In this document: one piece after another, positions 57,501 through 60,500 of the stretch
How the letters are laid out: each line of letters opens with the position of its first letter
Position numbering within the stretch: the first letter of the stretch is position 1
Origin: Eleginops maclovinus
Taxonomy: Eukaryota > Chordata > Actinopteri > Perciformes > Eleginopidae
Assembly (NCBI RefSeq): GCF_036324505.1
Contig: NC_086360.1
Location: 5,650,546 to 5,714,545 of the forward strand
DNA length: 64,000 bases
Direction of reading: 5' to 3'
Notes under the pieces: generated by a model
Told to the model about the DNA's origin: nothing
Database searches by the model: none
Seen by the model: only the letters and a program-made list of their open reading frames with translations
Position numbers and translations under genes: made by a program

Positions 57501-60500
57501 CACATGAGAGCTCACTTCCGAATACCTCCTTTAAAAAGTTTGTCACAAAGGCAATGGGATCGCTCTTCTCTATATCCTTTTTCAGTCCAAACACACGTAG
57601 ATTCAACTTTCTGTTTTGAATCTCCATCCTCTCAATTTTGTCTTTAAACTCTTTGTTTTCCTTCATTAGATTTCCATTTGCGGTTTCGAGTATAGCAACC
57701 CTACAATCCATATCGGTCAGTCCCTCCTCCACATCACCAAGCCTCTGACAACATGAGTCGAGTTCTCCCTTTAAAGCATCAAGTTGCGGCTGGAATCTCT
57801 CGAAAGCAGCCCCTATCTCCTCTCTTATTATTGAGCGTATTAGTGCCGACAGCTCCGAGTGGCTCACCTGCGAGGACTCGCTCTCCATGGCGTTCTCCTC
57901 AGCTGCTCGTGTGTCATTCACTCCCGACAGGCCGCTGCTCTCGTTTAACGGCACTTTAGCCTTTTTGTGTGCTTTCTTTGATGCCATTATATTCCCCACA
58001 TTATATTTCACTATGGACTTTGACTGAACAACTTGATCATCCGTTCATAACCGTATTTTTCAAAAGTTTGAAACGGGAGCTACACGCTCCTAAGTTTTAC
58101 ACACCACTTCCGCGCATGAGCAGTTAGAAAAACTCTCAAGTCTATCTAACTATCTCATACGATAAAGATGGAAGAGAGCTGGAACCAGACATTTCGAAAA
58201 ATCAAAATGAGTTAACCCATTATCAAAATACTCTCTTAAAAATGTTCCGTCAATTAACAAATTATTAATTAATTAATTAATTATTGTAATTGATTATTAG
58301 TTTCAGCTCTTATTCTCAGAAAAAGACCAACATTAAGAAGAATAGACCTATCTTTTATACTCATCAGGAGATGTCCTCCTCTGTGTGTGTGACAGGTGGA
58401 GGTGGACAAGCAGGTTTTTCGGGGAACGGGTCCCAATAAGAAAGTAGCTAAAGCCAGCGCAGCGCTTGCCGCCCTGAACAGCCTGTTCTCCGGCTCCAAA
58501 TCTACAAGCATCAAGAAGAAAAGACCCAACCCTCCTGTGAGTACATCACATGCTTCTCTATGCACCTTTAAATGAAACCACGTCATATTCAGTGCTCGTG
58601 TGTGTACCTGGTGTGTGTGTGTGTGTGTGTGTGTGTGTGTGTGTGTGTGTGTGTGTGTGTGTGTGTGTGTGTGTGTGTGTGTGTGTGTGTGTGTGTGTGT
58701 GTGTGTGTGTGTGTGTGTGTGTGTGTGTGTGTGTGTGTGTGTGTGTGTGTGTGTGTGTGTGTGTGTGTGTGTGTGTGTGTGTGTGTGTGTGTGTGTGTGT
58801 GTAGCCAAAGAGACCCGTAGCCTCGATGCTGACCCTCCCGGCCCTCGCTGCCAGACCTCCAAGTGTCCCCGTCATCCCCAGAGCCCCCTACATCAGCACA
58901 GCACCCACACATGGATACATCCCCCCGGGTGAGTTTTACATGGTTCACTATGCTGAGGAGTGAATCAGTTATATTTCAAATAAAATCATTGTAGGGTTCA
59001 CTAAGAATACCCATTTTTAATCTTTTTACTTATTAACTTTTTTGTATCATAATTACTAAACATAAAGATTGAAAGGTTTAATGTGGGTGAAATGGTTGAC
59101 AGTTTTCAGTGAGTAATATTTGGGAAAATACTTTTGGAAAAATACTAAATTTTTTCTTTATTTTCAACTTTACAGGAAATGTGGAAAAAGTTAGCTGTTG
59201 CGGCAAATCTGACACATTAATATGATGGATTCAAGTGGTCATGTTATTTAAATAAATAAATACTAACACAAACAAAACTGCTCTTATGTCTGTACACAGA
59301 ATACAAACCTGGGAGCCTGTTAGCTTAGCGCAGAGACTGAAAACAGCTAGCTAACACTCAGTAATAATATTTACAAAATCCGAAGTGTAGAAATAGAAAC
59401 CTGACATTTTACAGTTGGTGAAGCTACAAAGTATTTATTCCTTTTAGTGGCGGTTCTACATGGAATTACACCCCGGCGAGATCCCCTCCGAACCCCGCCC
59501 CCACCGCCGAAGGGAAAAAAAGTGGGGGGTTTTTTTCAGCAATTTTGTTGTTATGACAACGTAATGTAAATGAAAGACAAACTTACTTTTCAAGAATCAA
59601 TCAATGCACACAATCAGTGGCGTCTCTGGCACAAAAAGACTGGTGGGGCCCGGTCTCGCACGTGCACATGCACGCGGGGGGCTGTTGAAGCAGTACACAT
59701 ATATTCGCTGTAAGTGAGTCATGTAAAGTGCACCTACCTGCTAACCTACTTACTAAGAGAGATCACATAAGCCAGGTGTAGTAGCCTATAGTACAACAAT
59801 AGCTAGTCTGTGAGCGTTATCAATTTGAGCTGCTACATTAACCCTTCCAAGCAAGCCTAACCTAACAGCATTTCAACATGCGAACCACTGCTTTCGTGTT
59901 TGTTCAGACGTTCCGAAAGATGTTTCAAGTCCTTGAACCCTGTTGTAGTCCAAGCAGTGTCCCCCCCAAAGAGCAGGCAAGGAAAGCAAAAGAGAGACCC
60001 TTTAGCCACACTCGCAGTTAGCCATGCCTTTTTTTTTTAACCACTCTGAATAAAGGAGCGGTTTCTGTCCTTTCCAGACTGAATAATATTCAAATTAACT
60101 GGCTGGTCTGGTCCCAAACGCTTAGTCTCCAATTTCTGCTCTAATGGCAAGGTACTAAATTTAACTCAGTCCACAAGACTCCAGTGGCAGTTCTCCGGTG
60201 GGCCTAGCACCTGGCAGAAACAACTCCTCCGTCCTCAAGCAAGATGGGAGATGGAACGTTAACAGCCGCACTAGCAGAGACTGATGAGGTAGTGGCAGCT
60301 CCCGGTTCTCCGGTGGGCCTAGCACCTGGCAGAACAACTCCTCCGTCATCTTCAAGCTCAATGGGAATGGGAACGGCTAGCTGCCAGTGGAGCGCAGCTA
60401 ACGTTAACTAAGTTAGGCTAACAGCAGCCACTAGCAAAAAGCCCACTCAGCCTCAACGACGAACAAGCCGTAAAGTTGAGCAGTGTTTGCTAAGATTATG

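What the first reader, a model, noticed from the sequence alone, without database searches (positions are those of the whole stretch)
58537..58804. Intron 13 of strbp is mostly (GT)96 and ends directly in the acceptor AG
Seen: 192 of the 268 intron bases are a pure GT run, followed at once by AG and then in-frame strbp sequence. The run has no A, so no branch adenosine can lie within it. The nearest A upstream is at 58606, about 200 nt from the AG, where 18-40 nt is usual. There is no ordinary pyrimidine tract and no AG between about 58593 and the acceptor, which would allow scanning from a distant branch point. Inference: this 3' splice site may rely on UG-binding factors or RNA structure instead of U2AF2, and repeat length may tune exon 14 use.
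Basis: partly seen in the sequence, partly recalled or inferred. Interest (0 to 1): 0.78.

Follow-up and report, generated by a model that had tools for sequence, protein, structure and literature searches.

The report
GT-repeat splice acceptor in fish strbp
In a fish gene, a very long GT repeat sits exactly where the cell normally reads a pyrimidine-rich signal to cut out an intron; it looks like an extreme case of a repeat-flanked intron type already known from fish, with the matching partner repeats lying in neighbouring introns.

Summary
Intron 58537-58804 of strbp ends in (GT)96 followed directly by the acceptor AG, with no A after 58606 and no AG between 58592 and 58803. The exon join is sound: my spliced ORF matches an Eleginops maclovinus strbp-like model at 100% identity over 99% of the query, and 118 of 120 listed homologues keep the junction. 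Fish introns with AC repeats at one end and GU repeats at the other that splice without U2AF2 are already in print (citing passages). This intron lacks its own AC array. Best reading: a used acceptor with a distant branch point (58585-58606), pushed away by repeat expansion, the UG tract replacing the pyrimidine tract. A pairing switch skipping half or all of the second dsRNA-binding domain in frame is possible but untested. No RNA evidence was available. New variant of a known kind.

The parts
58396..58536 (+). strbp exon E14 (141 nt, phase 0/0), second half of the second dsRNA-binding domain
   Evidence: Pfam dsrm in the spliced protein
58537..58804 (+). intron I14 (the finding's 'intron 13'), donor GTGAGT, acceptor GTAG
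58585..58606 (+). inferred branch region: A58585, A58587, A58591, A58606 (197-218 nt from the AG)
   Evidence: candidate list; AG-scanning rules in PMC1431707 passages; inference
58591..58592 (+). upstream AG; if used, gives a 56-nt intron and a frame that runs through the array to a stop
58611..58802 (+). (GT)96 array in the place of the pyrimidine tract
58803..58804 (+). acceptor AG
58805..58928 (+). strbp exon E15 (124 nt)
45128..45169 (+). (AC)21 starting 2 nt inside the I13 donor (GAG|GTACACAC)
43240..43347 (+). (CA)54 starting 8 nt inside the I12 donor (scored as 53 AC units from 43241, 9 nt inside)
58382..58391 (+). (TG)5 ending 4 nt before the end of I13
29722..29964 (+). GT-rich array ((GT)56 plus degenerate units) ending 13 nt before the end of I9
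44991..45125 (+). strbp exon E13 (135 nt, phase 0/0), first half of the second dsRNA-binding domain
44728..44854 (+). TGTC array (31.2 copies) in I12, 136 nt before its end; imperfect partner of the CA array

Best explanation
This is a real, used 3' splice site in which a GT microsatellite has expanded between the branch point and the acceptor of a once compact intron (76 nt without the array). The first splicing step most likely uses an A at 58585-58606, close to 200 nt upstream of the AG. The acceptor is then found as the first usable AG, because a GT run contains no A and no AG. The UG tract, bound by UG-binding proteins or folded, stands in for the pyrimidine tract. Shown: the anatomy, and the exon join by protein annotation. 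Inferred: branch position, bypass of the AG at 58591, expansion history, factor use.
For: The spliced ORF matches an annotated E. maclovinus protein across this junction. 118 of the 120 homologues listed (of 2155 hits) have the same junction. The AG-free zone is 212 nt, the second longest of 14 introns measured; long AG-free zones mark known distant-branch-point exons, with mapped branch points 100-400 nt away (PMC1431707 passages). An AG closer than 12-15 nt to a branch point can be bypassed (same passages), which fits A58585, A58587 or A58591; A58606 has no AG after it. The better motif at A58571 (5 of 6 by my simple score) would expose AG 58591 and leave 34 nt from donor to branch, too short by recalled vertebrate limits. 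The longest pyrimidine run in the last 40 nt is 1. A second acceptor with a GT-rich array, I9, has a 256-nt AG-free zone.
Against: No RNA read or lariat was seen; the protein is an NCBI model. Candidate branch motifs at 58585-58606 are weak (2 to 4 of 6). There is no pyrimidine run over 3 nt next to them, unlike known distant-branch-point exons. Of 120 listed homologues, one (Gymnodraco, P0008) has a junction that fits an acceptor 6 nt downstream and one (Kryptolebias, P0113) has 20 extra residues there. The homologue models are not independent of each other.
Confidence: 0.6

Rival explanations
1. RNA pairing across introns: the GU array pairs with the (AC)21 at the I13 donor (or the CA array at the I12 donor), brings a distant donor next to this acceptor and governs whether E14, or E13 plus E14, is skipped in frame. 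This is the fish AC/GU bridge used across exons instead of within one intron. (Not exclusive of the best explanation.)
For: Polarity and closeness: 3 of 5 arrays of 20 or more units lie within 10 nt of the matching boundary (0 of 200,000 random placements), 4 of 5 within 150 nt (1 of 200,000). Model duplexes: (AC)21 with (GU)96 -84.3 kcal/mol, (CA)53 with (GU)96 -221.9, against -16.5 for (AC)21 with the (TG)5 at its own acceptor; a fold of the I13 donor with the I13 acceptor, E14 and I14 joined by a short linker also pairs the AC run with the long array. E12, E13 and E14 are 150, 135 and 141 nt, all phase 0/0, and both skips stay in frame. Of 136 fetched proteins one model (Echeneis, P0127) lacks E14 and one (Epinephelus fuscoguttatus, P0118) lacks E13.
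Against: I14 has no AC array of its own (longest run in the first 70 nt is 2 units). The partners lie 13.4 and 15.3 kb upstream, with a 7.66-kb insert between. Pairing is not specific: the I9 GT array pairs with the same AC arrays just as strongly (-84.3 and -223.7). No fetched protein shows the clean E14-skip junction, although only the best 120 rows of each search are listed and clustering at 90% identity would hide most such isoforms. Folding energies ignore kinetics and proteins. The random placement does not model repeat tolerance near splice sites.
Confidence: 0.2
2. Passive tolerance: GT arrays survive at acceptors, and AC arrays at donors, because they create no AG, no extra branch A and no competing GT donor. 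The arrays have no splicing role and their length is neutral. (Compatible with a distant branch point.)
For: It explains the polarity without any pairing. GT contains no A or AG, so the AG-free zone is kept at any length. I14 lacks a partner array. The unique part of I14 folds onto the array only slightly better than shuffled controls (14 of 200 shuffles as low or lower).
Against: A gap of 192 nt with no pyrimidine run over 1 should weaken a U2AF2-type site. UG arrays next to a 3' splice site do change splicing in human CFTR (PMC12171016 passages).
Confidence: 0.4
3. CFTR-like repression: TDP-43 (or CELF) bound along the UG array inhibits use of the acceptor, so length lowers E15 inclusion or favours retention and decay.
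For: In CFTR, TDP-43 binding to UG repeats upstream of exon 9 causes skipping (PMC12171016 passages). TDP-43 binds GU repeats as a lattice with a 12-nt site (PMC12697283 passages), so 192 nt could hold many copies. Retaining I14 or using AG 58592 gives a stop; E15 is 124 nt, so its skipping shifts the frame.
Against: 118 of 120 listed homologues include E15 with the normal start. No expression data.
Confidence: 0.15
4. Assembly or annotation artefact: the array is much shorter in most fish, or E15 starts elsewhere.
For: CLR reads with Arrow self-correction are the only base correction named in the assembly section; dinucleotide copy number is error-prone in such data (recalled). The Gymnodraco model fits an acceptor 6 nt downstream.
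Against: Frame and protein junction agree across species. The Echeneis model suggests a short GU-rich acceptor at the same place (by reverse translation).
Confidence: 0.07

Closest known systems
Fish introns with AC repeats at the 5' end and GT repeats at the 3' end, spliced without U2AF2 (Lin et al. 2016, Genome Res.; not held, seen only in citing passages)
   Same: Fish gene; long GT array at the acceptor; AC arrays at donors of the same gene
   Different: I14 lacks its own AC array; the long complementary arrays at splice sites are at the donors of the two preceding introns, so pairing would cross exons
Distant-branch-point exons with long AG exclusion zones (Gooding et al. 2006, PMC1431707, passages)
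   Same: 212-nt AG-free zone; inferred branch about 200 nt upstream
   Different: No pyrimidine tract next to the inferred branch; the zone is mostly a pure dinucleotide array
CFTR intron 8 (TG)m(T)n acceptor (PMC12171016 passages)
   Same: UG array next to a 3' splice site, potential TDP-43 lattice
   Different: 96 units against about 11-13 there, and no T tract before the AG
Human apoA-II intron 2 GU tract (that a GU tract of about 16 units stands in for the pyrimidine tract is recalled; a passage in PMC2662455, says only that TDP-43 takes part in apoA-II splicing)
   Same: GU tract directly upstream of the acceptor
   Different: Far shorter there (recalled)
pUG folds of long poly(UG) RNA (PMC12276007 passages)
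   Same: 12 or more GU units; long arrays form several folds; human pUGs are reported enriched near splice sites
   Different: 96 units exceeds the human maximum of 61 given there; nothing here shows that it folds in vivo

Membership tests
Fish AC/GT bridged introns (Lin et al. 2016) | GT repeats at the 3' end of the intron | tested here: met
   (GT)96 ends 2 nt before the intron end
Fish AC/GT bridged introns (Lin et al. 2016) | complementary AC repeats at the 5' end of the same intron | tested here: not met
   Longest AC/CA run in the first 70 nt of I14 is 2 units. Neighbouring I13 does have (AC)21 at the donor and (TG)5 at the acceptor
Fish AC/GT bridged introns (Lin et al. 2016) | splicing independent of U2AF2 | not testable with these tools
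   needs knock-down and RNA
[quoted passage not shown]
   212 nt; the other 13 introns measured 20-74 nt except I9 at 256
Distant-branch-point exons | pyrimidine tract beside the branch point at the 5' end of that zone | tested here: not met
   58585-58610 holds no pyrimidine run over 3 nt
Distant-branch-point exons | mapped distant branch point | not testable with these tools
   candidate motifs score 2-4 of 6; no lariat data
CFTR-type (TG)m(T)n acceptor | T tract between the UG array and the AG | tested here: not met
   AG follows the array directly
pUG-fold RNA | at least 11.5-12 contiguous GU units | tested here: met
   96 units; threshold from passages
pUG-fold RNA | forms the quadruplex in cells | not testable with these tools
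   ViennaRNA gives 0.0 kcal/mol for (GU)96; that it does not model the pUG fold is recalled
strbp (SPNR) | DZF domain plus two dsRNA-binding domains, collinear with orthologues | tested here: met
   Pfam DZF_N, DZF_C, dsrm in two stretches; E. maclovinus protein at 100% identity, 99% of the query covered

The most novel reading that the evidence does not exclude
Arrays at the donors of introns 12 and 13 and at the acceptor of intron 14 act as one length-tunable switch. Whichever AC array captures the (GU)96 decides whether exon 14, or exons 13 and 14, are looped out in frame, removing half or all of the second dsRNA-binding domain. The long perfect AC/GU duplex is itself a possible ligand of the strbp protein, which would close an autoregulatory loop.
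Probability: 0.05. Interest if true: 0.78.

Novelty: new variant of a known kind. Interest (0 to 1): 0.42.

Why it matters
It is a natural extreme case for three open questions: how far a branch point can lie from its acceptor when the gap is a pure UG tract, whether UG arrays can replace U2AF2 binding without an AC partner in the same intron, and whether AC and GU arrays in different introns of one gene pair across exons. Copy number of such arrays usually varies between individuals (recalled), so individuals or related notothenioids could serve as a ready-made length series.

Tried and rejected
Rejected: an in-intron AC/GU bridge for I14, because there is no AC run over 2 units in its first 70 nt. 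Rejected as main branch point: A58571, the best motif, because AG 58591 follows 20 nt later and the donor distance is 34 nt (with recalled size limits). The fold of the 74-nt unique part onto the array was tested against 200 shuffles and is weak (14 as low or lower). A search aimed at E14-skip isoforms (176 hits, 120 listed) gave none with the clean junction; 1 of the 136 proteins fetched in all lacks E14, with a different join. Comparison of this intron in other fish DNA was not made: I saw no collection of fish genomes among the tools, and the search of the window's own genome did not complete. A phage-collection search of the region found nothing. A literature search on strbp and repeats listed 8 of 20 papers, none on this; one on teleost introns and repeats gave no paper. 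The GU tract of apoA-II is recalled: the listings did not show it, and the one passage opened names only TDP-43 and apoA-II splicing.

Full report
What is there. The window carries strbp on the + strand. I rebuilt 15 exons (E2-E16, 3362 to 62838) with GT-AG borders and consistent phases. The protein has the DZF_N and DZF_C domains and two dsRNA-binding stretches. It matches a strbp-like model (isoform X2) of Eleginops maclovinus at 100% identity over 99% of the query. That protein shows that my last exon should end at 62821 and be followed by one more, whose peptide lies at 62921-63004; the coding exon before E2 was not located. The species is inferred from this match.

The observation. Intron 58537-58804 is 268 nt and ends in (GT)96 and then AG. 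The nearest A is at 58606, and the only AG dinucleotides begin at 58540, 58591 and 58803. In the last 40 nt of the intron the longest pyrimidine run is 1; in the other 13 introns measured it is 4 to 19.

Is the acceptor used? The junction NPP|PKRP is kept, apart from substitutions and one added residue in four rows, in 118 of the 120 homologues listed out of 2155 hits. Of the two others, P0008 (Gymnodraco) fits an acceptor 6 nt downstream, and P0113 (Kryptolebias) has 20 extra residues. These are annotation models of related species and isoforms, so they are not independent. In P0127 (Echeneis naucrates) the model lacks E14, starts E15 31 codons early and reads ...LIPVCVFVQ before PKRP. By reverse translation the end of the intron in that fish is compatible with a short GU-rich tract ending in CAG. 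This suggests, but does not show, that a modest GU-rich acceptor is older and was expanded in Eleginops.

Branch point. Known distant-branch-point exons have branch points 100-400 nt upstream and an AG-free zone after them; an AG within 12-15 nt of the branch can be bypassed (PMC1431707 passages). Here the zone is 212 nt. The upstream AG at 58591 would give a 56-nt intron, and its product runs through the array to a stop. By recalled size limits for vertebrate introns that is too short. The remaining candidates are A58585, A58587, A58591 and A58606, 197-218 nt from the acceptor, with weak motifs of 2-4 out of 6 by a simple score of mine; the same score gives 3 to 6 for the best site in the last 60 nt of the other introns. 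Without the array the intron would be 76 nt, so expansion between branch and AG of a compact intron is the simplest history (inference).

Of five AC or GT arrays of 20 units or more in the window, four lie at splice sites with one polarity. (CA)54 begins 8 nt inside the I12 donor, (AC)21 begins 2 nt inside the I13 donor, (GT)96 ends 2 nt before the end of I14, and (GT)56 ends 144 nt before the end of I9, with degenerate GT units continuing to 13 nt from it. The fifth, in I4, lies 1.2 kb from any splice site, and a shorter (CA)10 in I13 lies 0.75 kb inside. With free placement and orientation, 0 of 200,000 simulations reached three arrays within 10 nt and 1 of 200,000 reached four within 150 nt. 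The test was chosen after seeing the arrays, though the published fish pattern predicts it, and it does not model tolerance of repeats near splice sites. Short runs do not all follow the rule: the first 70 nt of I9 and of I14 each hold a (GT)4.

What is known. Citing papers state that in fish AC- and GU-rich elements at opposite intron ends pair and replace the need for U2AF2 (PMC9198270 passage; PMC12636285 passages; PMC7404189 section 4.1). The original paper (Lin et al. 2016) is not held; details beyond those passages are recalled. I14 fails one defining feature, since it has no AC array of its own. I13 has (AC)21 at its donor and (TG)5 at its acceptor. I12 has the CA array at its donor and a TGTC array near its acceptor that could pair imperfectly (-55.9 kcal/mol).

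The bold reading. (GU)96 could pair with (AC)21 (-84.3 kcal/mol) far better than the (TG)5 at I13's own acceptor can (-16.5), and with (CA)53 at -221.9. Such pairing would place a distant donor next to the E15 acceptor. Skipping E14, or E13 plus E14, stays in frame and would remove half or all of the second dsRNA-binding domain. Against it: 13.4-15.3 kb separate the arrays; a 7.66-kb insert with identical 405-nt terminal repeats lies between the I13 array and I14; the I9 array pairs with the same AC arrays as strongly; and no fetched protein shows the clean skip, though listing limits and clustering at 90% would hide most.

Other readings. GT arrays add no A and no AG; AC arrays at donors add no GT. 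So selection against harmful repeats could produce the polarity with no function. Long UG arrays can also bind TDP-43 or form pUG quadruplexes, each excluding the other in vitro (PMC12697283 passages; PMC12276007 passages), and TDP-43 on a UG array upstream of CFTR exon 9 causes its skipping (PMC12171016 passages). The length of 96 exceeds the human maximum of 61 reported in PMC12276007, but, if the window is from the published assembly, it rests on CLR reads self-corrected with Arrow (PMC10298351, assembly section).

Verdict. This is a new variant of a known kind: an extreme intron without its own AC partner, in a gene whose neighbouring introns carry the complementary arrays. The search of the window's own genome did not complete, so how common the pattern is in this genome is unknown to me.

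Noticed in passing
48615-56287: Young LTR-retroelement-like insert in I13: two identical 405-nt direct repeats 7259 nt apart, flanked by CAAAG on both sides, a likely target duplication, with long ORFs between. Assignment to BEL/Pao is recalled, not tested. It lengthens the intron from about 5.6 to 13.3 kb between the AC donor array and its acceptor.
   Followed up: partly
29700-29980: I9 acceptor: (GT)56 then many TCACTGTG-type degenerate units, a 256-nt AG-free zone, and TTCCAG directly before the array that looks like another acceptor.
   Followed up: partly
P0008 (Gymnodraco acuticeps): Model whose junction fits an acceptor 6 nt downstream of the Eleginops one (PK missing), suggesting variation of this acceptor within notothenioids.
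   Followed up: no
P0113 (Kryptolebias marmoratus): Model with 20 extra residues (VRKKHLQINSEPLILPRFHS) at the E14/E15 junction, possibly intron sequence read as coding.
   Followed up: no
P0118 (Epinephelus fuscoguttatus): Model lacking E13, the first half of the second dsRNA-binding domain.
   Followed up: no
   Followed up: no
1-469: Minisatellite with a 40-nt unit, 11.8 copies, 94% matches.
   Followed up: no
62771-63004: Two kinds of C-terminal end in the fish strbp models...FPSR...HLYPY against ...GLYIDSAYYQ...GPQDLF; the window encodes the first.
   Followed up: no
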